IMG/VR virus record: IMGVR_UViG_3300009537_000104
Location: 1-31,524 of that record
From: a virus
Direction: 5' to 3' (one strand)
DNA: 31,524 bases
In this document: positions 10,524-31,524 of the stretch, one piece after another
How the letters are laid out: each line of letters opens with the position of its first letter
Numbering within the stretch: the stretch's first letter is position 1
Position numbers and translations under genes: made by a program
Notes under the pieces: model-generated
Databases searched by the model: none
Told to the model about the DNA's origin: nothing
Seen by the model: only the letters and a program-made list of their open reading frames with translations

Positions 10524-11186
10524 ATGACAGAAGCAGAACTTCTAAAGAAGGTCAGTGTCCTGGAAGGACGCATGGAGGAATTAGTTAACCGTATTAGTGA
10601 GTATAAAACTGAGAATGCGAATTTAAAGACCGAGTTAAAAGCGTCTAGAGATACACTCCACTTAAAGGAACAGGGGTGGAAAACTGAAAAGGAAGATGCA
10701 GGTAAAACAGGCACTCAAATCGCAGAAAAATTAAAAACGCTTGAAACGGAGAATTCAACTCTGAAAGGCGCTGTTGAGAAATCGGAGAAAGAACTCTCAA
10801 AATTAAAAGCAGCAGCAGAAGAGGCTGCGTTTAGAAAGGTTGTATACGACGAATTGGGAAGCTACGAGTTCAAAAACGCCTTTGAGAAGGGCGGGTTTGA
10901 AAAGGAGATGTTTTCTAGAGGAGAGGACGGCAACTTTTTACCGCATGATACTCTTAAAAAGAAAATTAAATCCTTCCTTGAGAGTGTTAAGAAGGGTACT
11001 GAAACGCCTCCTGATGCCGCTTCGAAAAATAAGGCTGAGGATCACGGGAACAAGGGCTCGACTGACATATCGACTAAAAGTACTCGAATTGTAGAGCTAC
11101 TCAAAAAACCCGTGCGCACTCGTGACGAAATGGGCGAATTGATGCGTTTGGAATCTGAGATTGAAATTGCGTGTAGGGCTAAATAA
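10524..11186 (+). CDS. scaffold-like coiled-coil protein, copy 1
   Basis: The 220-residue protein is highly charged. Residues 1-95 are a long coiled coil rich in Glu, Lys and Leu heptads. Residues about 100-155 form a small domain ('YEFKNAFEKGGFEKEMFSRGE...TLKKKIKSFLESV'), and after a Gly/Ser/Pro linker a C-terminal helix begins 'STRIVELLKKPVRTRDEMGELMRLESEIE'. Scaffolding proteins of siphophages have this composition and sit directly before the capsid gene. The next gene encodes a paralog with the same domain order. Confidence 0.65.
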   Translation: MTEAELLKKVSVLEGRMEELVNRISEYKTENANLKTELKASRDTLHLKEQGWKTEKEDAGKTGTQIAEKLKTLETENSTLKGAVEKSEKELSKLKAAAEEAAFRKVVYDELGSYEFKNAFEKGGFEKEMFSRGEDGNFLPHDTLKKKIKSFLESVKKGTETPPDAASKNKAEDHGNKGSTDISTKSTRIVELLKKPVRTRDEMGELMRLESEIEIACRAK

Positions 11187-11845
11187 TGGACCGCGAAGAT
11201 ACGCATGACTCAGAACACGAGTTGGACTACAGCGGGTGGTCTCATGAAGACTTTGTAGGTGAGATTAAAAAACTGCGTAGGGAGAACGCTTCAAAGCGCG
11301 TTAGATTGCGCGAACTGAGCGAAAAATCTGCCGATTCGACTTTAAACATTACCGTCAATGAGCGCGATGAACTTAGAGATAAATTGCAGAAGTTACGGGA
11401 TCGCATAGAAACGGGGGAGTACGTATCGAGCAGCAGCCTCGAACTTCTTAAAAGCGCTTTTTTGAGGGAGAAGGGGGAGGCTGATTCGGCTTTGGCGCTC
11501 GCTCGTGAGGAGCTTACAAAAGAGCGTCTATTGCGCGACGCGTATACTAAAGTGTATAACTCGGGCTATAAATTTAAAAATGTTCAGGAGCAAACTGGCT
11601 TTGAATATTTTGTGCTGAATAAAGGTAAGAATGGGGCATTCAAATCCCCCGAAGAGATATCGTCTTCCATAGATGTATTCTTAAAAGAGAATTTCACCCC
11701 TGCCCAGTTACCTGTAGCAGGGCCGCTCCCGGGCTCAGGGAGTCCGGCCAGCGAGATATTGCGAATAATGAAAAAGGGTAAATTGGCAAGCGAGGATATT
11801 AAAAGGATTTGCGAGCTCGAAGCTCAGATTGAAAGATTAAAATAG
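11186..11845 (+). CDS. scaffold-like coiled-coil protein, copy 2 (paralog)
   Basis: The 219-residue protein overlaps copy 1 by a TAATG junction. It repeats the same plan: coiled coil (about 20-110), small domain ('YKFKNVQEQTGFEYFVLNKGKNGAFKSPEEISSSIDVFLKE'), Pro/Gly linker, and a terminal helix 'SEILRIMKKGKLASEDIKRICELEAQIE'. Matching positions with copy 1 include 'FKN...GFE', 'G.NG.F', 'FL' and 'LE..IE'. The two probably arose by an old tandem duplication. One could be the main scaffold and the other an assembly modifier. Confidence 0.65.
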   Translation: MDREDTHDSEHELDYSGWSHEDFVGEIKKLRRENASKRVRLRELSEKSADSTLNITVNERDELRDKLQKLRDRIETGEYVSSSSLELLKSAFLREKGEADSALALAREELTKERLLRDAYTKVYNSGYKFKNVQEQTGFEYFVLNKGKNGAFKSPEEISSSIDVFLKENFTPAQLPVAGPLPGSGSPASEILRIMKKGKLASEDIKRICELEAQIERLK

Positions 11846-13307: not shown

Positions 13308-14546
13308 ATGTGGGTCAGGTATACTTTAAGTGCAGATGAGAAAATTGTCGAAGTCAACAATCATAAGTACACATTTCCTAAAATGTGTTGGCTGCAAATT
13401 ACCGATCCGACATTGCTCAGAAAAGTAACTGATCATCCCGATGTTTTCGAAGTGGCGGACTTTGATTTGATGATGCTGGACGGCATTCATAATGTTAAAT
13501 GCCACGGCAAATTGATTCACACGAATGATCCTGTATCTGCAACGCAGATGTCGTCATCCAAATATTTTGCCCTAAAAGCGCGCGTAGAAAACACGTGGAT
13601 ATTTAGAATATGTATCACAGATGCTAAATATAAACTTACTACTGCATTAACTCGCGATACTCCGACCATTGGGGTGTATAGGCTTAAAGGAGGATGGGGG
13701 GACATTGTCATGTCATTCTCCGCTGCTAGGGCATTAAAACGACAATACAAGAATTCAAAAGTAATATACTCGTGCCCATTGGCATTTAAAGAGCTAGTAG
13801 ATTGTGATCCTGAAATTGAATATATGGAATTGAATTCTTTTTCGAAAAGTTCTTTCGATGCCTTCGTAAACTTGACGAGTCCGTGCATTAAGCATGAGAT
13901 TTCTAGACAGCCGAATGTTGATAAGAATCGAACGGAGATATTTTGTGGTGAGTGCGAAACTTCGTATAGTCGTTATTTTAAGCCCTGTCAGCCTGTTAAC
14001 AAGGTTTACTTGTCTTGGGCAAAAGAGTTTATGCGTAAGTTTTCGCGACCGATTATAGGCTTCGTTCCCGAAAGCTGCGCGCCTATTCGAAGTTGGGGGC
14101 ACTTTGAGATCGTGTCTGAGATGTGCAGTGAGCAATTACGCTCCACGAATCTGATCTTCAACTCGTTAGGCTCTTACGCCTGGCGTAGATACGAGGATAA
14201 GAAGATATTTGGATACACAATGGGTCAAGTGGTGGCCCTGCTATCAATGTGCGATATTGTTGTTGGCGTAGATACAGGTCCCATGCACTCGGCGGCTTCC
14301 CTGGGGGTCCCAACGATTTGGTTATTCACTCATATCGATGGCGCTGTCCGCACTAAAGATTATAAAAATGCTGTAGTAATACAAGACAAGGAGTGCGATA
14401 GGAGCCCTTGTTGGTATATGAAACCTTGCGATGATGGCAAAACAGCTTTATGCGGAGAGAATATTAAACCCGCACGAGTATTTAATACAATTATGCACTG
14501 TTTAAATGCGGAGAGACAATGTCGTACAGCGTCAATAGCGATTTAA
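13308..14546 (+). CDS. glycosyltransferase family 9 (heptosyltransferase-like)
   Basis: The protein has 412 residues. Residues about 118-412 show the two Rossmann halves of GT9 (GT-B): 'GVYRLKGGWGDIVMSFSAARALK' at 122-144, the glycine-rich acceptor loop, and 'DIVVGVDTGPMHSAASLGVP' at 316-335, the nucleotide-sugar site with D-T-G-P-M-H. The Cys-rich end 'CDRSPCWYMKPCDDG..ALC' resembles the C-terminal loop of phage and LPS GT9 enzymes. Residues 1-115 are an extra domain I do not recognise. It lies between capsid and connector genes and overlaps the next gene by 28 bp. It could glycosylate a virion protein or alter host glycans. Confidence 0.8.
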   Translation: MWVRYTLSADEKIVEVNNHKYTFPKMCWLQITDPTLLRKVTDHPDVFEVADFDLMMLDGIHNVKCHGKLIHTNDPVSATQMSSSKYFALKARVENTWIFRICITDAKYKLTTALTRDTPTIGVYRLKGGWGDIVMSFSAARALKRQYKNSKVIYSCPLAFKELVDCDPEIEYMELNSFSKSSFDAFVNLTSPCIKHEISRQPNVDKNRTEIFCGECETSYSRYFKPCQPVNKVYLSWAKEFMRKFSRPIIGFVPESCAPIRSWGHFEIVSEMCSEQLRSTNLIFNSLGSYAWRRYEDKKIFGYTMGQVVALLSMCDIVVGVDTGPMHSAASLGVPTIWLFTHIDGAVRTKDYKNAVVIQDKECDRSPCWYMKPCDDGKTALCGENIKPARVFNTIMHCLNAERQCRTASIAI

Positions 14547-22047: not shown

Positions 22048-22516
22048 CTCCCTTGATCGTTTTAGCCGAGCGCTCAATTGTGAGGCTAAACGTTGGATAG
22101 GTGTGCCGTTTAGAAATATGGGGCGCACGCTATTGGGCGTGGACTGTCAAGGTCTTATAATCTCAATGTATAGAAATCTAGGGTACAATATCCCGCATGA
22201 AATTGATGAGGCGTATTCGTATAATTGGCAATTAGGCAACCCTAGGAAATGCGAGTCTGTGTTGAACACCTATTGCGTATTGACGACTCATGACGCTAAA
22301 ACCGCAGGGGACATATGCGCGTTTAGAATTAATCACGAGAATGTAAATCACTTAGGCGTGTGGATTTCACGTGTTGAATTTATACACTCCTACGCAGGAG
22401 GAAAATTCGAAGTGTTAATTTCTGATCTCACTAAGCATTTCTGGGCGTCAACATATTCAGAAACTTATAGACTTAAATTTATGGTTGAGGAGCATAAGAG
22501 ATGGGCGGCGGAGTGA
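22007..22516 (+). CDS. NlpC/P60 peptidoglycan hydrolase of the tail tip
   Basis: The 169-residue protein has the NlpC/P60 order: 'WIGVPFRNMGRTLLGVDCQGL' with catalytic Cys47, 'NVNHLGVWI' with His115, and a probable third residue His127 in 'EFIHSY'. Such tail-tip hydrolases open the peptidoglycan during DNA entry. The 5' 41 bases overlap the upstream gene and no clear ribosome site precedes the ATG, so the true start may lie slightly downstream at a non-ATG codon. The 3' end overlaps the hub start by 16 bases. Confidence 0.8.
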   Translation: MADSLISLSNLSFSSLDRFSRALNCEAKRWIGVPFRNMGRTLLGVDCQGLIISMYRNLGYNIPHEIDEAYSYNWQLGNPRKCESVLNTYCVLTTHDAKTAGDICAFRINHENVNHLGVWISRVEFIHSYAGGKFEVLISDLTKHFWASTYSETYRLKFMVEEHKRWAAE

Positions 22517-25500
22517 CAGTAGGACAAGCGGCAGGCGCTGTTGTAGGCGGCGTTGTCGGCTTTTTCGCCGGAGGTCCTGCAGGGGCTCTGTACGGAGCGT
22601 CATTGGGCTACGGTATAGGCGGCATGATTGATCCGCCTAAAACACCCGGCCAGGATATTGATACACAAGATTTAAGCTTCAATACTTTTCAGCGCAATCT
22701 TCCTGTGCCTATTGTATATGGTAGGAATAAGGTTCCTGGAAACATTATATGGATAGGTAACACACGATCTAAAACGCATAAGGAAAGCGGCGGGGGAAAG
22801 GGCGGCGGTGGAGGTGGTGCATCTAAGTGGGTTGAATATTTCGCTGATTTTGCTGTTGGTATCGCAGAAGGTGAGATAGTAGATATTGTAAATGTATACG
22901 TCGATGACGCTGATGTTACAGCTAATGAGGGGGATAGTTGGGTCGGCTATGTAGGATCAACTACTCAAGTTGTCAACTCAAATGTGCAATCCGCTATTCC
23001 TACAAATCCCCCTTTGTGGAGAAATACAGCGTATTTGCTCTTTACGGGGTCTCTGGGTCAAATGAATAGACTTCCGACGTTGTCTGCAATTATACATGGC
23101 ATTGATTCGGAAATAGTAGGGGATGTTTCTATCGGCGGAAGTTGGGAGGATTACTTAGCAACGCCATATACAGGCACTGAAAGTCACTTTTACCCAAATC
23201 CGAATGCCGACGGCACAGAACTACTTGCTGTATGGTTCAACCGAACTAGCCAATGGACTAAATATTATAAGTGGACGAAGGCGAGTCAGCAGTGGACGTA
23301 TCTGGGGCAGAGAAACGGTTTTAGTGTTCTGAATGAGATGGACGGACGTAATCTGTGTAGGGCGATATACTGGAAAGGCCAGTGGTGGCACGGCTCCTTC
23401 AGAGACAGCCCATTTTATTGCTTTTTGACATACACAAGTGACTTCATCACGTTTAATGATTATAGTACGCCGTCTTTGCAATACACCAAAATCCAATTTG
23501 TAGCGCCCTCATTAAACGATAGCACGCTTTTCTTCGGGGGAGGAAACAATTCCACTGCGAAGTGGGAAATATGGGAAACACCATTTCCTGTCAGTCCTAC
23601 CCTTCGTTATCAAACGCCGTCTACCTACACCATGCTCGGGGCGAGCGTTGTAAAATACGATAACAATAATAGCTACAGAATAGTCGTATTCACGAAGACT
23701 GGAAGTAGCTATTACATAGCTATTTCTAACGAGAACGATCCAACAGCATTTACATATTACGATTTTACGTTGTATGGGAGTTTTACACTCGGGGGCGGCG
23801 GATGGACTATTCCTGTCAAGTATACGGAGGAGGACAGATTTTATTTTTGTGCGCTAAACAGCGGCGATTCTGACAAAACATACCTATACGCTTGTACGTT
23901 TGATGGGACGATTACTATTCACACTAAGGTGACAGATACCGTCATTAGTATTTACAAAACAATAGGCGGAATGTTTTCATGGAACGGTTATCTTTGGATA
24001 TCCTCTCATGAATGGGACGCCGCACTTTCACAGTGGAGTCATATATGCGGATATTGGGCGTCTCAAACAGACGAGATGGTGTGGTTAGACACGCCGGTTT
24101 TCACGTATAGATATAGCGGTCTCGGATCGCTGACACACGACGATGAATACCTAAGGTTGATTCAGGCGGATTTCTCGGGGGGCGGCGTCAACAGGGATGT
24201 TAGGCTAAGTGTCGGTCCTCTTGTAATTAATAATTCCCCTCCTACGAGTGTATGGGATTTTTTAACAAATACTCGTTACGGCATGGGCATTCCTGAAGAG
24301 AAGCTTGATATAGACTCATTTATCGCTGCGCATAATTATTGTATTGAAGAAATATCGGCAGGGGATTTAAGATACACTCTAGATATCGTTCTTGGCTCTT
24401 CCAAATCTGCTCTTGACCATCTTGTTATGATGCTGCAATCCTTCGGAGGGTTTTTGGTATGGTCTGAAGGCGTCATAAAACTTAAGGTGGAGAAATCCGA
24501 ATCAAGTACTGCATCTTTAACTGAAGATACGATAATAGCGGACTCTTTTCAATACACAGTACCCTCTTTAAAAGACGTCCCCAATCGTGTTAATGTTGAC
24601 TTTCGAGATCGTGAAGACGATTTCCGTCATAGGATATTAACTGCAAATGACGAGTATAACCAAGACGACACATCAGAAATACGGTCATTAGATGTGCAGT
24701 TACACGGCGTAACTCGCGAGACTCAAGCTGCCCGACTTGCGCAATTCTATTTAGACAGCGCTATTTCAAATCAGATTATATTGATCTTCAGGGTAAGCAT
24801 ACAAAATATAGCGTTTGAGGTGGGCGATGTAATTGACATTACACATTCTCTTCCTGGATGGACGGGAAAGCTCTTCCGCATAATGGAGATATCAGAGGAA
24901 GAGAATGATGAGATGCTCGTAACATGCAGGGAGTATAACGCAAATATCTATCATGATGAGCCAGCAGCGTCACAAGGAAACACAGACTCCTATATACCCT
25001 CCTCATTCGCACCGCCTGAACATGTGGTGCATTTGGACGCGTATGAAAAACCGGAGGCCCCTGAAATTCGAGTGACATTCTCTTTGCCTACTAACCCTGG
25101 GTGGTGGGCGGCGGCTCAGATATATAAGAGCGTAGGGGATAATTTGAATTATGAGCATGTTGGCGATTCACTTGATATATCAGATGCTGGATTGGTTGAG
25201 TCGTCTATTACGGCTACAGCGTCAATTTTATACGTCAAAAGTATATATGGATCATTTCCCGCGAGCGGCACATTAATTGTAGATGATGAGGAGATGGCGT
25301 ACAGCACTTTCACTGACGATGGGGATGGGACGGGCTATTTTTCGGGGCTTACACGAGGACAGAACAATACGTCTGCTGCACCACATCTTGTCGATGTCGT
25401 CATCACGCTAAAAGCAGGCTCTTTTATTTACGGATTTGATACTGTAAATGAGTTATATCAAAGACTGTACTTTAAGGCAGTCTCTGTATCTCCGCGAGGG

Positions 25501-25938
25501 GTAGCGGCTACTCCCTTGGCATATGCGCCTGAGACGTCTGTGGACGTAGTCGGTAGATATAAACGCATGCCGCCTGTCGGTAGTCTACAAATTAATGGGC
25601 AGGGTAACTATAAGGTATTGCCTGATAGTGTAGATTGTGTTATATCATGGAGAGGCCGGAATCGGTACGTCGGTTACGGCAAAATGAAATATGGTGCTTA
25701 TGAGGGTGGATACGGCGGTGGAGGCAATGAGGATGGATTTCAATATTATCGTATAGATATATTAAGCAGTGGCGGATCAACATTGCGGATTGCCCGAACC
25801 ACAGACGAGTCATGGACATATTCATCTGCGATGAGGACTGTAGATGGTACAGATACAGGAGCTGATTTCACAATAAACGCGAGGCAGAAATCGTCGTGGG
25901 CTTTATCTGAAGGTGTTACTCTCGTTGTCAACTCGTAA
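22501..25938 (+). CDS. tail hub / host-specificity protein with inserted propeller-like domain
   Basis: The 1145-residue protein opens with a Gly-zipper-like hydrophobic stretch (about 8-45), then 'RNLPVPIVYGRNKVPGNIIW' typical of hub proteins, and a poly-Gly loop near 97-106. Residues about 570-850 contain the conserved tail-protein core ('SVWDFLTNTRYGMGI', 'DLRYTLDIVLGSSKSALDHLVMMLQSFGG', 'RVSIQNIAFEVGDVIDITH'). Between them, residues about 212-563 hold a Trp/Tyr-rich insertion with repeated 'YKWTKASQQWTYLG / YWKGQWWHGSF / YTSDFITFNDYS'-like strands, resembling a beta-propeller. The C-terminal 70 residues are a FnIII-like end domain that also occurs as a relic near 30.2 kb. Confidence 0.82.
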   Translation: MGGGVTVGQAAGAVVGGVVGFFAGGPAGALYGASLGYGIGGMIDPPKTPGQDIDTQDLSFNTFQRNLPVPIVYGRNKVPGNIIWIGNTRSKTHKESGGGKGGGGGGASKWVEYFADFAVGIAEGEIVDIVNVYVDDADVTANEGDSWVGYVGSTTQVVNSNVQSAIPTNPPLWRNTAYLLFTGSLGQMNRLPTLSAIIHGIDSEIVGDVSIGGSWEDYLATPYTGTESHFYPNPNADGTELLAVWFNRTSQWTKYYKWTKASQQWTYLGQRNGFSVLNEMDGRNLCRAIYWKGQWWHGSFRDSPFYCFLTYTSDFITFNDYSTPSLQYTKIQFVAPSLNDSTLFFGGGNNSTAKWEIWETPFPVSPTLRYQTPSTYTMLGASVVKYDNNNSYRIVVFTKTGSSYYIAISNENDPTAFTYYDFTLYGSFTLGGGGWTIPVKYTEEDRFYFCALNSGDSDKTYLYACTFDGTITIHTKVTDTVISIYKTIGGMFSWNGYLWISSHEWDAALSQWSHICGYWASQTDEMVWLDTPVFTYRYSGLGSLTHDDEYLRLIQADFSGGGVNRDVRLSVGPLVINNSPPTSVWDFLTNTRYGMGIPEEKLDIDSFIAAHNYCIEEISAGDLRYTLDIVLGSSKSALDHLVMMLQSFGGFLVWSEGVIKLKVEKSESSTASLTEDTIIADSFQYTVPSLKDVPNRVNVDFRDREDDFRHRILTANDEYNQDDTSEIRSLDVQLHGVTRETQAARLAQFYLDSAISNQIILIFRVSIQNIAFEVGDVIDITHSLPGWTGKLFRIMEISEEENDEMLVTCREYNANIYHDEPAASQGNTDSYIPSSFAPPEHVVHLDAYEKPEAPEIRVTFSLPTNPGWWAAAQIYKSVGDNLNYEHVGDSLDISDAGLVESSITATASILYVKSIYGSFPASGTLIVDDEEMAYSTFTDDGDGTGYFSGLTRGQNNTSAAPHLVDVVITLKAGSFIYGFDTVNELYQRLYFKAVSVSPRGVAATPLAYAPETSVDVVGRYKRMPPVGSLQINGQGNYKVLPDSVDCVISWRGRNRYVGYGKMKYGAYEGGYGGGGNEDGFQYYRIDILSSGGSTLRIARTTDESWTYSSAMRTVDGTDTGADFTINARQKSSWALSEGVTLVVNS

Positions 25939-25978: not shown

Positions 25979-26061
25979 GTAATAGTCTGGTATCCGAGAA
26001 TACATACATTACAACCTCCGAGAGCAACAAAGGCACGTGATGAACGTGCCTTTGTTGTTTT
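25979..26061 (+). ncRNA. predicted small RNA of about 83 nt
   Basis: The interval runs from the expected start of the consensus promoter to the T-run of the terminator. It contains no open reading frame with a ribosome site. The 3' half is the terminator stem. The 5' half has short self-complementary pieces only. A free-standing promoter-terminator pair of this spacing is the standard layout of a small regulatory RNA. It could alternatively be a trap that only blocks read-through. The exact ends are estimates. Confidence 0.5.
26025..26061 (+). terminator. intrinsic terminator after the virion operon
   Basis: CAACAAAGGCACGT (26025-26038) and ACGTGCCTTTGTTG (26044-26057) form a perfect 14-bp stem with a GATGA loop, followed by TTTT. 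It would end both the long virion transcript and the small RNA from the promoter at 25944. The minus-strand side lacks a T-run. Confidence 0.85.
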
Positions 26062-26173
26062 AGAACTATTGGAGTTTGCGCGTAACGCGTAGCAACATCA
26101 CACGCTGATCCTCTCTCAGAAGCTGTCTAGATAAAGTTTTTATATCTCTTCCCCCTTCAGCGCCTAAATTCCA

Positions 26174-26554
26174 TCAAAACAAATTTGGTTCGAATGCGAA
26201 GTGGTGGCAAGCATCTGTCACTGCTTTTTCTCCATCCGCCGCCGTTACGGCCTTACGCATTCTTTTGAACCTTTCTATGTATTTTATATTCTTCTCTTTA
26301 TTGCCGTAGTTTGGGTTAGGGATGTGGAGTAGACTTCCGTCTAGCCACACAACAATATCTGGCCAGTCATAGGCCAAGGTGCAATATGAGCACCTATTGT
26401 TTAGTGGGAAATATTCCTGCGTGACAACATTTAAGAGGATATTGTTTGATACAACTAATCCTCTTTTTATATCGGCAGAGTGGGCGTCAGGGAAACGCCC
26501 CCCGTTCTCTGTTATAAATGGATACTTGGCAATAAACATTTCTTTTAATGTCAT
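26174..26554 (-). CDS. hypothetical phage accessory protein
   Basis: The 126-residue protein has a clear AAGGAGAG site 7 bases before its ATG. It begins 'MTLKEMFIAKYPFITENGGRF', then 'KRGLVVSNNILLNVVTQEYF', followed by 'NNRCSYCTLAYDWPDIVVWLDGSLLHIPN', and a basic helical C-terminus. Two Cys (CSYC) lie near the centre, not enough for a zinc site alone. It is the only minus-strand gene close to the hub and faces the virion terminator. No family is recognised. It may be an early or lysogeny-type accessory gene. Confidence 0.55.
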   Translation of the reverse strand: MTLKEMFIAKYPFITENGGRFPDAHSADIKRGLVVSNNILLNVVTQEYFPLNNRCSYCTLAYDWPDIVVWLDGSLLHIPNPNYGNKEKNIKYIERFKRMRKAVTAADGEKAVTDACHHFAFEPNLF

Positions 26555-26930
26555 TTCACTCTCCTTTAAAAATTATTTATCCCTTCGAGAAGGGATTTTT
26601 CCCTCCTCATGTATCGCATTGTTTTTAAACAATTGCGAGCACAGTCCTCTCACGCCATAAGGCGCACTGGATTTGTTATGCAAACATATAAATGCAGTAA
26701 CTGTGCCATGGGTTACATAGAAAGATAATAAGTTGTAATGTGTTTATATTATAACAATTTAGCTTTAGTTTATTATCTAATCATACACATTATAAGATAA
26801 TGTACGACAAAAACTGAATTACAAAAACGTCACAAGCGACAAAAACTGTAATTTACTTGCATTTGTAAACTTTAAATTAAAATTTATAAAAGAGATTAGT
26901 GTAAAGGAGAAGTGTGTTAAAGGAGGCAGT
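26555..26930. promoter_or_regulatory. 376-bp divergent control region
   Basis: This AT-rich gap lies between the minus-strand hypothetical gene and the plus-strand TIM-barrel gene. It holds: a hairpin with T-run on the plus strand (ATCCCTT/AAGGGAT, 26579-26596, then TTTT); a second stem (CGC-ATTGTTT/AAACAAT-T-GCG, 26615-26637); AGTTGTAATGT at 26731-26741, shared with the small-RNA promoter; two direct repeats (26805 and 26837); and TTGTAA, 16 bases, TATAAA as a candidate promoter near 26865-26892. An AAAGGAGG site precedes the next ATG. No gene is seen. Confidence 0.5.
26805..26852. repeat. direct repeat CGACAAAAACTG, two copies 32 bp apart
   Basis: CGACAAAAACTG occurs at 26805-26816 and 26837-26848, each followed by (A/T)AATT-like sequence. 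A partial copy (ACAAAAACGTCAC) lies between them. A 32-bp period is three helical turns, so a protein could bind both copies on one face. The repeats sit upstream of a candidate promoter. Confidence 0.55.
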
Positions 26931-27791
26931 ATGAATAGAATAAGCTTTAAGCTCTTTCATGATTTTGACAAGAGGGCAGAATATAAAGAGCTTTTTAAAA
27001 ATGTGGATTACCCGCTGAGTTATCTTAAGAGTATCGGTGTAGATGCACTAGAAGTGCCTTTTAACTTTTGCATGTCAATAGAAGAGGTCTATACTGAGTT
27101 ATGTGAATTCATAAACGAGGGATTTAAAGTATCAATTCATCCATATACTTGTCGCACTATCTGGGATTACGGTGAAGAAGCATGTAACCCTTATTTTGAT
27201 AGGTTGTTTGACAAACTTTGCAAGTTAAATCAGGCTCATATAATCTGTAATGTACACGGGGCAATGCCCTCTGATAACACAAAATATAGTAGGGGAGACT
27301 ATCTGGGCAGGACAGTATGTTTCTTAGATCGTTATCTATGCCGGCTTAGGGGCACCAATATAGAAATAGTTCTTGAGCTGCAACAAAGATCGGCCACTGA
27401 GATAAGAATAGCCGACACATGGAAAGAGTTAAGTGAGCTGTCCCATGCTGTAGACATGCGTATGTGCTTGGACATAGGACACATGTATCTAAACAATCTG
27501 GCAGGGGCAGATAGCACCCCATTGCCCACAGGCGGTATAGATAGAATAGCGCACGCACATGTGCACGGCATACATGATGTCAGAGATCATTGTACGCTCG
27601 ATGAATCTAGTTTGCCGTGGGAGATGTACATCAACGAGCTGCTTATAAACAAATATGAAGGAAGTTTTATCTTAGAGATAATGGCGGACAATATGCTTAA
27701 GGAAGGCAAGAATATATCTAATTTAAAGACTTCTATCTGCCTGTTAAAAGAACAGATTCAAAAATCTCTTAATAACGCGGGAGTAATTTGA
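26931..27791 (+). CDS. AP_endonuc_2 / xylose-isomerase-like TIM-barrel protein
   Basis: The 286-residue protein has the length and metal-ligand ladder of the endonuclease IV / sugar-phosphate isomerase superfamily: H70 ('SIHPY'), H109 ('NVHGA'), E149 ('VLELQ'), D181 and H184 ('CLDIGHMYL'), H208/H210/H212 ('HAHVHGIHD'), H220 and E249 ('FILEI'). The 'H..LDESSLPWEMYINELL' segment resembles the isomerase branch ('H.plG.G.idw..y') more than Nfo, whose 'DRH' motif is not exact. It could be an isomerase/epimerase or a nuclease. AAAGGAGG precedes the ATG. It begins a plus-strand cassette with the next two genes. Confidence 0.68.
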   Translation: MNRISFKLFHDFDKRAEYKELFKNVDYPLSYLKSIGVDALEVPFNFCMSIEEVYTELCEFINEGFKVSIHPYTCRTIWDYGEEACNPYFDRLFDKLCKLNQAHIICNVHGAMPSDNTKYSRGDYLGRTVCFLDRYLCRLRGTNIEIVLELQQRSATEIRIADTWKELSELSHAVDMRMCLDIGHMYLNNLAGADSTPLPTGGIDRIAHAHVHGIHDVRDHCTLDESSLPWEMYINELLINKYEGSFILEIMADNMLKEGKNISNLKTSICLLKEQIQKSLNNAGVI

Positions 27792-27809
27792 AATAGGAAA
27801 GGATTGGTC

Positions 27810-28202
27810 ATGATAAAAAACGCAGTAAAGCCTTCTGTCAAAAGAACAATATCCCTTGAGGAATTTAGGCAAGCATGTAAAGTACAAGGCGCATCTAGGA
27901 GTAAGGACGTAGTATTCAAATGTGTAAGCTGCGGAAATCTTCAATCACAGGAAGGTTTTATGAAGTGGTTTGATATGTCCGAAGAGGAAGCTGCCAAATA
28001 CGCACATTTCTCTTGTGCTTGAAGATTCAAGTCGTATAAAGGTAAGGGATGTGACTGGTCATTAGGGGGTCTTTTTCACATACACAACTTAGAGCTTGAT
28101 CTAGGGGGCGGCAAGCTAGTTCCTATATTTAACATAGCGACCGCAGAAGAGGCGGATGCCTTTAGAAAAATGTGGGGCTTTGTTAAAGGTGAAAAGCTAT
28201 AA
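27810..28202 (+). pseudogene. VVA0879-family protein interrupted by an in-frame TGA
   Basis: The ATG at 27810 follows AGGAAAGGA. Read through one TGA at 28020-28022, the frame gives a complete VVA0879-like protein of about 130 residues. The N-terminal part has 'VFKCVSCGNLQS' and 'HFSCA', and after the TGA come 'RFKSYKGKGCDWSLGGLFHIH' and 'PIFNIATAEEADAFRKMWGF'. Family members, as I recall them, have FSC-x-G-R-F here, so the TGA replaces the Gly (GGA to TGA). Four Cys on both sides of the stop suggest one zinc-binding fold. It is either a fresh nonsense mutation or a read-through gene. Frame and motifs are otherwise intact. Confidence 0.72.
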
Positions 28203-28293
28203 AGAAAATTTACCTTGTAATGTAGGAGGCAAGGGCACTCTTGTATATGAAGAGTCTACCTTAATTTGTGGACAAAACATGGAGGAGCTATGT

Positions 28294-28926
28294 ATGACAT
28301 ATCTAAATGAGTTTAAAGCGTTAAAGTGTGCAAATGATATATTAACCGTGCTAAGTCCAATACCCAAGATGGAAAAGGAAATATCAGAAGCTATGACAAT
28401 ACTAAATGCCCTCATACGAACAGTGGGTAGTTTGGGTATTGAACTGCACAATATATATGATCTGTGTGCAGGAAATGGTCTTGCCGGTGTGTTAATTACA
28501 CATATGTATAAAAGGGCTAACGTAACTGCTGTTGATATACATAAAAGAGTGCGAGAATGGGAGAAGATAGATCGGTTTCAGTATCTAGAGGCAGATATAG
28601 CAATCCTGAAGCACAGGGATGTTTCTGGGGGTATATTAATCTCCTCACACCCATGTGCTAATGCTAAGTACCTTGTTCAAATGTTTAGGCAGCTAAACCC
28701 GAAGGCGCTCATAATGATTCCATGTTGCAGTGGGAAAGTAAAATATGATATACCCCAAGCAGTACAGGATAAACTGGGAGATTACGCCTCTTGGTGTTTT
28801 AGTCTATATCAAGAATCGAAGATATTTGCAGAAACAGAATCTCTAGAAAAGATAAAATTATGTATGTATTATGCCAAGAAATGTGTATCACCAAGAAATA
28901 TAGTAATAACAGCAATTCGGGAATAA
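28294..28926 (+). CDS. class I SAM methyltransferase (Methyltransf_32-like)
   Basis: The start at 28294 has GGAGGAG 6 bases upstream; the frame is open further upstream but overlaps the previous gene. The 210-residue protein has motif I 'IYDLCAGNGLAG' (D56, G60, G62), 'VTAVDIHKR' as motif II, and 'LISSHPCANAKYLVQMFRQ' followed by 'ALIMIPCC'. The H-P-C-A...PCC pair is characteristic of Methyltransf_32/TRM13-like enzymes ('LHACG...PCC'). The substrate is probably RNA or a small molecule; DNA is possible. The 91-bp upstream gap contains a second ribosome-like site (TAGGAGGC, 28222-28229) and the TTGTAATGT motif. Confidence 0.7.
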   Translation: MTYLNEFKALKCANDILTVLSPIPKMEKEISEAMTILNALIRTVGSLGIELHNIYDLCAGNGLAGVLITHMYKRANVTAVDIHKRVREWEKIDRFQYLEADIAILKHRDVSGGILISSHPCANAKYLVQMFRQLNPKALIMIPCCSGKVKYDIPQAVQDKLGDYASWCFSLYQESKIFAETESLEKIKLCMYYAKKCVSPRNIVITAIRE

Positions 28927-28959
28927 TATTACAGTGTGGTGGAGTAAGGTTCCTCGCAA

Positions 28960-29145
28960 TTACCTCGTAACATATGGCGCAAATGCGCTGTTATAGATAT
29001 TTCTGTTATATTGCTGTGGAGCACAGCCTTGCATATAATAGCCCCCATTCGGGGATAGTGTCATGCGCCCGATGCTGTTCGCTGCCCCTGAACATCCGAG
29101 TAGCATTAGACTAATAAACAATGTACTGAGTCGTACCAACAACAT
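28960..29145 (-). CDS. small lipoprotein, copy A
   Basis: The 61-residue product has a lipoprotein signal: 'LLVRLSTLFISLMLLGC' with lipobox L-L-G-C and Cys18 as the lipidated residue. The mature part is 44 residues, 'GYYMQGC' near the middle and the end 'SAFAPYVTR'. Its start overlaps the end of the 166-residue gene by 35 bp, and its GGAGGA site lies inside that gene, so translation is coupled. Copy B at 30971-31156 matches in length, lipobox, 'YYMQ' and 'SAFAPY.TR'. Lipoproteins of this size serve in lysis, exclusion or surface masking; no family is recognised. Confidence 0.7.
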   Translation of the reverse strand: MLLVRLSTLFISLMLLGCSGAANSIGRMTLSPNGGYYMQGCAPQQYNRNIYNSAFAPYVTR

Positions 29146-29611
29146 GGCTCAGTCCTCCTCTGTCCTGTAAGATAGCTGCTACGAGTGCTGTACTGCTACC
29201 CTCAACTTCTATCTGAAAGGTATCTTTGTAATAGGAATTAACAGTCTCTAAAGATACCTTGTTATTTCTGAAATAGCTGAATATGACAGCGATCCTATAA
29301 GCTTCGCTGTTTTTGTTAAAGATATTTGAGATGTCTACCCACCCCTTAACTTGAGTGGGTTTGGCTTTCTTAGCCTTCATTTTGACTCCATAGGCTGGCA
29401 TATCTTTAATCTTCAGTTCCTGAGTAACAAAAATCTTTGTGTACAACTCAAGATTATCCTTTATCCAGGCATAAGAATTAGGATATCCCATATTTCTTGC
29501 CATTCTGGCGATAACCATGGGATATTGGGTATAATATTCGTAATGCCCCGTGGGCTCGTATGCCAGCATGGCCATTCTTATACCTGTTATTATGTTCTTA
29601 GAGATTGTCAT
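29111..29611 (-). CDS. 166-residue protein of the lipoprotein module, copy A
   Basis: The start lies in an ATGA overlap with the stop of an upstream gene fragment, with AGAGG nearby. The first 60 residues hold 'TGHYEYYTQYPMVIARMARNMGYPNSYAWIKDN', a Tyr- and Arg-rich helical pattern shared with copy B. The C-terminal part, from 'NSEAYRIAVIFSYFRNNKVSLETVN', has helix-helix-strand order that could form a winged helix. Between the halves is a Lys-rich linker. I know no family for it. Constant pairing with a lipoprotein gene suggests a joint function; DNA or protein binding is only inferred. Confidence 0.65.
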   Translation of the reverse strand: MTISKNIITGIRMAMLAYEPTGHYEYYTQYPMVIARMARNMGYPNSYAWIKDNLELYTKIFVTQELKIKDMPAYGVKMKAKKAKPTQVKGWVDISNIFNKNSEAYRIAVIFSYFRNNKVSLETVNSYYKDTFQIEVEGSSTALVAAILQDRGGLSHVVGTTQYIVY

Positions 29612-29748
29612 AACAGACCTCTAACTCTGTCCAGTTCTTCTTTGGTGTGGGCTACACCACACCCGTTCATGTGTAAATACCCTTCAACAACCTCTTTCTT
29701 ATTGTTGAGGTTATTAACGTTGAACAGGAATTCATACTGCCATAGCAT
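29608..29748 (-). pseudogene. 5'-truncated gene upstream of copy A
   Basis: A minus-strand frame ends 'VVEGYLHMNGCGVAHTKEELDRVRGLL' with its TGA in an ATGA overlap with the 166-residue gene, the usual layout of an operon. Going upstream, the sensible protein runs out where the sequence becomes antisense to the ParB-like fragment, near 29738-29748. No ribosome site precedes any start there. It is therefore a gene that lost its 5' part at a rearrangement point, with the 3' end kept. Confidence 0.5.
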
Positions 29749-30076
29749 CGAAGATAAGTATAGAATTGTCGATGGGTTCCATAGATATGAGACACTAAAA
29801 AGATTAGGAGCTAATAGAGTATCTATTATTCAATTGGATATACCGTACCACGAAGCTGTTCAATTAACCGTTCTTATGAATCGGATAAAAGGAATGCATC
29901 AAGTGGAAAGTATGAGCGATTTAGTAGTTAATCTTGGGGATTTAGGTGTTGGAGATAATGAGATATGTGAGAATCTAGGGATGGAACCTGAAGAGTATCT
30001 ACGCCTTAAACAGCAGCTTGGTATTGCCCATGCGTTTAGGAACCATGAGTACTCAAAAGCGTGGGAAGATAAGTGA
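29741..30076 (+). pseudogene. 5'-truncated ParB/IbrB-like protein
   Basis: The plus frame gives 'YRIVDGFHRYETLKRLG', the ParB/sulfiredoxin-nuclease signature (DGFHRY), followed by 'TVLMNRIKGMHQVESMSDLVV' and an HTH-like 'GVGDNEICENLGMEPEEYLRLKQ', ending 'YSKAWEDK'. This order matches IbrB-like phage ParB proteins, which work beside a PAPS-reductase-like partner. The N-terminal part of the nuclease fold (first strands and QP-loop) is missing and no start or ribosome site is present; upstream sequence belongs to the truncated minus-strand gene. No IbrA partner is in the window. It is a relic. Confidence 0.68.
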
Positions 30077-30297
30077 TTAGCCGTTAATAACTAAATTTGT
30101 AGCATCCGACAGCGACCATAAAGATCGCTGTCTAACTCTTATCGTAAAATCAGCACTAATACCTGTCCCGTCTTCAGTGCGCATAGCAGATGTATATACC
30201 TAAGTTTCATCTGTAGTTGCATGAGACCGGATAATAATTCCCGCATCAACAATTTCAATTAAGAAGTTAACAAACGTATCTTCTGCTAATAACATTT
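30077..30297 (-). pseudogene. C-terminal relic of a second tail-hub protein
   Basis: Translated on the minus strand, this stretch reads 'FLIEIVDAGIIIRS' then 'TTDET*VYTSAMRTEDG', then 'ADFTIRVRQRSLWSLSD' and ends LVING. It aligns with the last 65 residues of the hub at 22501-25938 ('TTDESWTYSSAMRTVDG', 'ADFTINARQKSSWALSE'). My hand alignment has 27 identities over the last 46 positions. The one internal stop, TAG at 30200-30202, stands where the hub has Trp (TGG). It stops directly against the ParB-like relic stop. Upstream, the frame closes at once with TAA, so only a fragment remains. Confidence 0.8.
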
Positions 30298-30429
30298 ATG
30301 TAGTTAGCTTTTTGCCGCTTTATGTATGTTTAGTCTATAACTTTAAAATTTTCGCCTCGTTGCATAATAATTGCATCATTCGTATTCCAGTATTGTTAAG
30401 TCATTATTCTACTGAAAGGAGGAACAATA
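30298..30429. promoter_or_regulatory. gap upstream of module copy B
   Basis: This AT-rich gap separates the hub relic from copy B of the module. Its left part may be decayed hub sequence (minus-strand 'GENFKVID' followed by a stop). TTGCAT occurs twice, at 30360 and 30371, 11 bp apart, a spacing of one helical turn. No convincing -10 was found, so the promoter for copy B is not located. AAAGGAGG lies just before 30430. Confidence 0.35.
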
Positions 30430-30480
30430 ATGAAATGTAACTTAAATATCTACATGAAAATCGCGTGGGAGGTAGAATAG
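30430..30480 (+). CDS. 16-residue leader peptide before module copy B
   Basis: The open frame MKCNLNIYMKIAWEVE has a near-ideal AAAGGAGGA site 6 bases upstream and its TAG directly abuts the ATG of the 166-residue gene. The stronger ribosome site thus belongs to the leader, while the gene itself has only GGGAGG inside the leader. This is the layout of a coupling leader, or of the remnant of a longer upstream gene like the one preceding copy A. Confidence 0.4.
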   Translation: MKCNLNIYMKIAWEVE

Positions 30481-30981
30481 ATGGATGATATCGTACTAAT
30501 CGGTATTCTAGCCGTGGAGAGGTTTTATACGAATACTGGTTACATCCATTACTACATGTCGCATCCCAATGTTGTCTCGAAGAAAGCCCGGGATTTGGGC
30601 TACAGCGACGCTGCTGAATGGATTAAGAACAATCCCGATGAGTATTTAAAATATTATACTAAGGGAGAGGGGCTCGAAAGTGAAGATGCTTTTCAAGAGT
30701 TTAAACCGAGAGAGGCACCTAAATACTCTCGAAAGGCAAAGAAAGAGTGTGATTATCTAAATATGTTTCCAGAAAATACGGAAGCATATAAATTAGCGTT
30801 GTGTATCGGCTACTTTAGAGGGAAGCGCGTCTCTTTACGCCGTCTGACTGATGTGTTTAAGTCAGCGTTCGGGAGATATCCTGAAGACGCCGTTCAAAGA
30901 CGGTTTTTTGGGTTTTTGATGGCGGAAAATTACGTAGCAGAGATAACATCTAAGGGGGAGGTGACGTACTATGTTAAATAA
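30481..30981 (+). CDS. 166-residue protein of the lipoprotein module, copy B
   Basis: The protein is exactly as long as copy A. Shared positions include 'TGYIHYYMSHPNVVSKKARDLGY...EWIKNN...Y.K' (copy A 'TGHYEYYTQYPMVIARMARNMGY...AWIKDN...Y.K'), and 'N.EAYK.A...YFR...VSL'. The Lys-rich middle linker is poorly conserved. Both halves therefore look constrained and the linker free. The C-terminal region with 'GEVTYYVK' could be the wing of a winged helix. Its 3' end overlaps the lipoprotein gene by 11 bp. The function is unknown. Confidence 0.68.
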   Translation: MDDIVLIGILAVERFYTNTGYIHYYMSHPNVVSKKARDLGYSDAAEWIKNNPDEYLKYYTKGEGLESEDAFQEFKPREAPKYSRKAKKECDYLNMFPENTEAYKLALCIGYFRGKRVSLRRLTDVFKSAFGRYPEDAVQRRFFGFLMAENYVAEITSKGEVTYYVK

Positions 30982-31156
30982 AAACATATTTATAATAATT
31001 GTTACGATGCAATTATTGATCGGATGTGCTTATAAGCAATTCGGACGTAAAACGGCGTGGCCAAATCAATCCTACTATATGCAACAGAAGTTACAGAATA
31101 GCGCGGCTATGGGAAATATATCGACATCCAGCGCTTTCGCCCCGTACACGCGGTGA
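30971..31156 (+). CDS. small lipoprotein, copy B
   Basis: The 61-residue product has a lipoprotein signal (KNIFIIIVTMQLLIGC, lipobox L-I-G-C, Cys19 lipidated). The mature part carries 'SYYMQQKLQNSAAMG' and the end 'SSAFAPYTR', the same tail as copy A. A very good GGAGGTGA ribosome site lies 7 bases upstream inside the 166-residue gene. Its stop is TGA, whereas copy A stops with TAA at the equivalent point, which shows that TGA is a normal stop here. The mature C-terminal SAFAPY-x-TR may bind a partner. Confidence 0.72.
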   Translation: MLNKNIFIIIVTMQLLIGCAYKQFGRKTAWPNQSYYMQQKLQNSAAMGNISTSSAFAPYTR

Positions 31157-31322
31157 ACATATCATTTTCTGGCATCTACAGCAATTTAAACATCGTCTAG
31201 TATGATTCTCCTACGCCGCTGTATTTTTATATTGCTCACGCTATATGTATGGGCAGCTACAGCAGCTTAAAATCGATTTTGGTTTAGGGGAGGTTTGATT
31301 TGAGTCAGGAATGCCTTTAAAA

Positions 31323-31417
31323 CTTCCAAAACTGCCTCTAACTTTAACTTTAATTGCCTTAGTATATATTTCCATAACCGAGCACAGTAAAATTGAAATT
31401 AGAGGCGTTTTTGGAAG
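31323..31417. repeat. imperfect long inverted repeat
   Basis: CTTCCAAAACTGCCTCTAAC (31323-31342) pairs with TTAGAGGCGTTTTTGGAAG (31399-31417) with two to three mismatches over about 20 bp. The arms are 50-60 bp apart. Transcribed, it would make a long stem; as DNA it could be the ends of a small decayed element. Confidence 0.4.
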
Positions 31418-31460
31418 CCAAAGCATTTTTTAGCAAAAGGAGGCGATAAAAATATTTTTC

Positions 31461-31476
31461 TGGCATAGATTTTGCT
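31461..31476 (+). promoter_or_regulatory. possible sigma-54 type promoter
   Basis: TGGCAT, five bases, TTGCT matches the -24/-12 consensus (TGGCAC-N5-TTGCW) with one mismatch and correct GG-GC spacing. No gene start follows before the window ends, so its target is unknown. A single match in AT-rich DNA can occur by chance. Confidence 0.25.
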
Positions 31477-31524
31477 ACGTGCGCACATGCGTAATATGGA
31501 AGTCGCACGCCTGCGCGCGCAGTT

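What the first reader, a model, noticed from the sequence alone, without database searches (positions are those of the whole stretch)
28960..31156. Duplicated two-gene module: 166-residue protein plus overlapping 61-residue lipoprotein, in opposite orientations
Two copies of the same unrecognised gene pair lie in this accessory region, one on each strand. Both proteins keep identical lengths (166 and 61) despite heavy divergence. The first keeps a Tyr/Arg-rich N-half and a winged-helix-like C-half; the second keeps a lipobox, a YYMQ element and a SAFAPY-x-TR end. In both copies the lipoprotein ribosome site is inside the upstream gene and the genes overlap (35 and 11 bp). Preserved pairing, length and coupling suggest selection for a joint function at the envelope, such as exclusion, lysis control or receptor masking. 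The function is inferred, the pairing is seen.
Basis: partly seen in the sequence, partly recalled or inferred. Interest (0 to 1): 0.75.

Follow-up and report, generated by a model that had tools for sequence, protein, structure and literature searches.

The report
Duplicated phage regulator–lipoprotein gene pair
An uncultured tailed phage carries two old, intact copies of an unknown gene pair, probably a DNA-binding protein plus a tiny membrane-anchored lipoprotein, with no detectable relatives in the collections searched, which may change the host surface to keep other phages out.

Summary
The 166-aa proteins (29111-29611 -, 30481-30981 +) are 30% identical (BLASTP 1e-22). The 61-aa lipoproteins (28960-29145 -, 30971-31156 +) are also homologous (7e-7). 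Both pairs overlap as stated (35 and 11 bp), with a strong ribosome site inside the upstream gene. Equal lengths mean less than claimed, because indels cancel. The pair is an orphan: no relative was found in IMG/VR, about 50,000 phage records, plasmids, about 85,000 species genomes or the family libraries. The requested co-occurrence test therefore cannot be made.

New results: (1) the C-half of the 166-aa protein is predicted, at low confidence, to be a winged helix, so it looks like a cytoplasmic DNA-binding protein, not an envelope or spanin partner. (2) Between the copies lie only gene remnants: a ParB-like piece, a tail of a possible ParB/DUF262-like gene, and a decayed second copy of the tail-tip J C-terminus on the strand of the first pair. 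Both pairs stayed intact in a recombination scar. (3) Both mature lipoproteins are basic and lack acidic residues.

Best guess: a regulator-coupled envelope cassette, the lipoprotein acting in superinfection exclusion like Cor/Llp. This is inference (about 0.3).

The parts
29111..29611 (-). P1, 166-aa protein of copy 1: helical N-domain plus predicted winged-helix C-half
28960..29145 (-). L1, 61-aa lipoprotein of copy 1 (lipobox LLGC, mature 44 aa, net +3, no acidic residue)
29154..29159 (-). Shine-Dalgarno AGGAGG of L1, inside P1
30481..30981 (+). P2, 166-aa protein of copy 2
30971..31156 (+). L2, 61-aa lipoprotein of copy 2 (lipobox LIGC, mature 43 aa, net +5, no acidic residue)
30954..30961 (+). 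Shine-Dalgarno GGGGGAGG of L2, inside P2
29608..29748 (-). 46-codon upstream ORF whose stop overlaps the P1 start (ATGA); possibly the 3' remnant of a ParB/DUF262-like gene
   Evidence: the homology is weak (E about 1, by-eye alignment), and Pfam gives no match
30430..30480 (+). 16-codon leader ORF MKCNLNIYMKIAWEVE, SD AAAGGAGG at 30415-30422, stop abuts the P2 start (TAGATG)
   Evidence: sequence reading
29750..30076 (+). ParB-like remnant (phrog_2159 positions 107-227 of 365), 5'-truncated at about 29745-29750
30077..30283 (-). Decayed copy of the tail-tip J C-terminus (60% aa identity over 38 aa, E 1e-10, one internal stop)
22501..25938 (+). Intact tail-tip protein J (phrog_1101, phrog_31)

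Best explanation
A phage accessory cassette of two translationally coupled genes. The first makes a small cytoplasmic winged-helix DNA-binding protein, which probably controls when the cassette or nearby genes are expressed. Ribosomes then reinitiate on the second gene, which makes a 61-aa prelipoprotein that is lipidated and cut to a 43-44 residue basic peptide held in the host outer membrane. There it most likely blocks or alters the phage receptor, as Cor and Llp do (superinfection exclusion). The second copy came by recombination with a relative's region near the tail-tip gene J, leaving truncated J, ParB-like and other fragments between two intact pairs. Shown: homology, pairing, coupling geometry, lipobox, remnants. 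Predicted at low confidence: winged helix. Inferred: regulation, outer-membrane site, exclusion function, origin by recombination.
For: Homology and pairing with protein-level constraint. Lipobox and ribosome sites. Models of both copies match mostly winged-helix proteins: P2 Foldseek best E 0.015 (Fur, ArsR, PadR, SSV1/STIV F93), VIA-align Z 10.2, rmsd 2.3, 79 residues; P1 weaker but the same fold class. No transmembrane segment in P1/P2. The pairs lie in the region after J, and a decayed J C-terminus lies on the strand of copy 1. Published exclusion lipoproteins are small and typically encoded directly downstream of gpJ (PMC9586334; PMC13164509). Both pairs stay open while everything between them is truncated.
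Against: No sequence similarity to Cor/Llp or to any phage lipoprotein. The pairs are not directly downstream of J: L1 lies 3.0 kb and L2 5.0 kb beyond its end, with other genes between, and copy 1 is on the opposite strand. No second-cysteine pair as in Llp. Known cor cassettes have membrane proteins upstream, not a winged helix. The models have mean pLDDT 46-51 only. The host and receptor are unknown.
Confidence: 0.3

Rival explanations
1. Lysis cassette: the lipoprotein is an outer-membrane spanin (Rz1-like) or a release lipoprotein that breaks the outer membrane at the end of infection.
For: Size (61 aa), lipobox and overlap with the upstream gene resemble Rz1. No lysis gene was recognised among the window ORFs that I scanned.
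Against: The partner has no transmembrane segment (maximum 19-residue hydropathy 0.87 and 1.17) and is predicted to be a winged helix, so it is not an inner-membrane spanin. The mature lipoproteins have only 3 and 2 prolines. A second divergent copy would be redundant.
Confidence: 0.12
2. Lysogenic-conversion or host-takeover moron: the lipoprotein changes the host envelope for a purpose other than exclusion (uptake, stress, surface charge), expressed under control of the winged-helix partner.
For: AT-richer accessory region with other non-structural genes; basic mature peptides; no similarity to known exclusion proteins.
Against: No integrase or repressor is seen in this fragment, so temperate life is not shown.
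Confidence: 0.25
3. The two genes are only neighbours: an accessory DNA-binding regulator and a lipoprotein that share a transcript without a joint function. Both copies descend from one ancestral operon.
For: No relatives, so independent co-occurrence is untested. The two products are predicted to sit in different compartments. Overlapping genes are common in phages.
Against: Pairing and coupling survived divergence to 30% identity and survive in a scar where other genes decayed.
Confidence: 0.25
4. The second copy in one genome is an assembly artefact: the contig joins two related phages at about 29745, where two 5'-truncated genes meet head to head.
For: ParB-like (+) and the upstream ORF of P1 (-) are both cut at 29745-29750. 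It is a linear metagenomic contig of unknown completeness.
Against: A second truncated fragment, the J C-terminus at 30283, lies away from that joint, which speaks for a real mosaic region. G+C is similar on both sides. Reads are not available.
Confidence: 0.08

Closest known systems
Superinfection-exclusion lipoproteins Cor (T1, phi80, N15, HK022) and Llp (T5)
   Same: Small phage lipoprotein encoded in the part of the genome after the tail-tip/receptor-binding genes; preceded by accessory genes in the cor cassette
   Different: No sequence similarity; no cysteine pair; not immediately downstream of J; partner looks DNA-binding, not membrane-associated
Rz/Rz1 spanins
   Same: About 60-aa lipoprotein whose gene overlaps the upstream gene
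   Different: Upstream protein lacks a transmembrane segment; lipoprotein not proline-rich; only the ends overlap
Winged-helix regulators (Fur, PadR, ArsR classes; SSV1/STIV F93)
   Same: Predicted C-half topology H-E-H-H-E-E; Foldseek and VIA-align matches
   Different: No sequence family match; extra N-terminal helical domain with TG-xxx-YY-xxx-P-x-V and WIKxN motifs that matches nothing known

Membership tests
Cor/Llp superinfection-exclusion lipoproteins | Small lipoprotein with signal peptide and lipobox | tested here: met
   LLGC/LIGC after a hydrophobic N-terminus; by motif reading only, no wet test
Cor/Llp superinfection-exclusion lipoproteins | Sequence similarity to Cor/Llp | tested here: not met
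   No PHROG or Pfam match; tblastn against the phage collection gives only chance hits
Cor/Llp superinfection-exclusion lipoproteins | Gene directly downstream of gpJ/receptor-binding gene | tested here: not met
   J ends at 25938; other genes lie between. A decayed J tail lies near the pairs
Cor/Llp superinfection-exclusion lipoproteins | Intramolecular disulphide (Llp) | tested here: not met
   One extra Cys in L1, none in L2
Cor/Llp superinfection-exclusion lipoproteins | Blocks the phage receptor | not testable with these tools
   Host and receptor unknown
Rz/Rz1 spanin pair | Partner is an inner-membrane protein with an N-terminal transmembrane helix | tested here: not met
   Maximum 19-residue hydropathy 0.87 (P1) and 1.17 (P2)
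Rz/Rz1 spanin pair | Proline-rich outer-membrane lipoprotein | tested here: not met
   3 and 2 prolines in 44 and 43 residues
Winged-helix DNA-binding proteins | H-S-H-H-S-S fold | tested here: inconclusive
   Right topology in both models and consistent fold matches, but pLDDT 46-51 and best Foldseek E 0.015
Winged-helix DNA-binding proteins | Sequence match to a known regulator family | tested here: not met
   Pfam, NCBIfam, PHROGs, PADLOC, PDB sequences: nothing credible

The most novel reading that the evidence does not exclude
A new two-part phage system in which a DNA-binding protein and a co-translated basic mini-lipoprotein work together, exchanged with the receptor-binding end of the tail-tip gene, so that receptor specificity and self-exclusion are swapped as one block, and a phage may hold two specificities at once.
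Probability: 0.12. Interest if true: 0.65.

Novelty: new variant of a known kind. Interest (0 to 1): 0.36.

Why it matters
Phage morons that modify the envelope are poorly catalogued outside enteric phages. A pair kept twice in one genome at 30% identity, beside a decayed copy of the J tail, is a compact test of whether receptor-binding tips and exclusion lipoproteins travel together. As it stands, the protein families are orphans and the function is not shown.

Tried and rejected
Homolog searches: 8 IMG/VR scans; one search used a pattern with one base too few and is void, corrected; one search was for the capsid protein. tblastn of P1 and P2 against phages and of P1 against plasmids: none. 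L2 hits in Rhizobium and Salmonella phages lie inside larger unrelated genes. Genome scans: none; 30 pattern hits are nearly all one unrelated bacterial family with a look-alike YY..P..AR..GY..W motif, and the profile gives no convincing match. About 1,400 genomes of four phyla: none; the same tool found both copies in the window from P1 alone. Weak library hits (phrog_13043, GAIN, PedR) judged chance: P1 only, low scores, not shared by P2. Inversion across the 12-bp inverted repeat at 26925/29730 considered and dropped: matches of that length are expected by chance and flipping does not restore ParB. A diversity-generating template/variable repeat was considered for the J fragment and dropped: 89/136 identical bases, differences not confined to one base. 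Shared operators upstream of both copies: no shared direct word of 9 or more bases.

Full report
Setting. The window is a whole IMG/VR virus record of 31,524 bases, linear, completeness unknown. It carries a siphovirus-type head and tail gene set (portal, major capsid protein, tape measure, tail-tip J) that is remote from named phages (capsid 24-28% identity at best; J matches only in its central part). The accessory region after J (26000-31524) is AT-richer, 0.37-0.40 G+C against about 0.44.

Observation. P1 and P2 share 30% identity (BLASTP 1e-22) and L1 and L2 are homologous (7e-7); none of 2000 shuffles reached either score. A six-frame self-comparison finds no further copy in the window. 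Among residues identical in both copies the same codon is used in only 14 of 44 and 7 of 23 cases, and second codon positions diverge less than third ones, most clearly in the lipoprotein. So protein sequence, not recent copying, explains the likeness. Chance of a stop-free 166-codon frame at this composition is about 8e-6. Equal lengths are partly coincidental, since the alignments need 24 and 10 gap columns.

Coupling. Each lipoprotein has a strong Shine-Dalgarno motif inside the upstream gene (29154-29159, 30954-30961). These two upstream ORFs are not alike.

The 166-aa protein. No family library, PDB sequence or phage record matches credibly. Two AlphaFold models from the two-sequence alignment are of low confidence (pLDDT 46 and 51) but agree: five short helices, a disordered linker, then H-E-H-H-E-E. 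Structure searches with each model return mostly winged-helix proteins: P2 best Foldseek E 0.015 and VIA-align Z 10.2 over 79 residues to Fur-type regulators; P1 E about 1 but the same fold class. In the BFVD viral library no match passes E 0.001. There is no transmembrane segment. I take the winged helix as likely, not proven, and a shared fold shows no function.

The lipoprotein. A lipobox follows a hydrophobic start. The mature peptides are 44 and 43 residues, net +3 and +5, without a single acidic residue. The residue after the cysteine is S or A, not D, which by the rule known from enteric bacteria (own knowledge) favours the outer membrane.

Neighbourhood. Between the pairs nothing is intact. 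A ParB-like segment (29750-30076, phrog_2159 positions 107-227 of 365) lacks its start. The 46-codon ORF on the other strand begins at the same spot (29745-29750); its end (GYLHMNGCGVAHTKEELDRVRGLL) resembles the end of a ParB/DUF262-like phage protein (weak, Pfam silent). From 30283 to 30077 on the minus strand lies a decayed copy of the C-terminus of J (60% identity over 38 aa, E 1e-10, alignment score 160 against a shuffle maximum of 54, one internal stop), ending directly beside the ParB stop. This is a scar of repeated recombination, or at 29745 possibly a chimeric join. Two intact pairs in a field of broken genes argue that the pairs are kept by selection, or that they arrived recently in already functional form.

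Function. Small phage lipoproteins with known roles are mainly exclusion proteins and outer-membrane spanins (own knowledge). For exclusion, the literature places such genes directly downstream of gpJ and shows how Llp jams FhuA from the periplasm (PMC9586334); cor cassettes also contain upstream accessory genes of unknown role (PMC13164509). The pairs here lie in the region after J and close to a second J tail, which raises exclusion above the other options, but strict position, sequence and cysteines do not fit, so I do not file them as Cor/Llp. The spanin reading fails on the missing membrane helix of the partner.

Limits. No homolog was found in IMG/VR, phage, plasmid or species-genome collections. 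These scans rely on exact peptide or DNA patterns or on two-sequence profiles and would miss relatives as distant as the two copies are from each other when the chosen motifs have changed.

Noticed in passing
window 30077-30283 (-): Decayed second copy of the C-terminus of tail-tip J, one internal stop, ending beside the ParB-like remnant.
   Followed up: yes
window 29745-29750: Two 5'-truncated genes meet head to head (ParB-like + and a 46-codon ORF -): recombination junction or possible assembly chimera.
   Followed up: partly
window 28156-28926 (+): Methyltransferase with a weak Methyltransf_32 match (E 2e-5, below the curated cut-off) and an SHPC...PCC motif pair, unusual in a phage accessory region.
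   Followed up: no
window 26931-27791 (+): Xylose-isomerase-like TIM barrel (AP_endonuc_2), with a sub-threshold match to cobamide-remodelling phosphodiesterase CbiR.
   Followed up: no
window 10524-11845 (+): Two adjacent ORFs (220 and 219 aa) before the capsid gene are weak paralogs (26%, E 4e-4), perhaps a duplicated scaffold protein.
   Followed up: no
window 13308-14546 (+): An ORF that reads like a heptosyltransferase-type glycosyltransferase (by eye, PHROG match weak) sits inside the head-tail gene cluster.
   Followed up: no
window 31323-31417: Imperfect 30-nt inverted repeat (83%) with 35-nt spacer downstream of copy 2.
   Followed up: no
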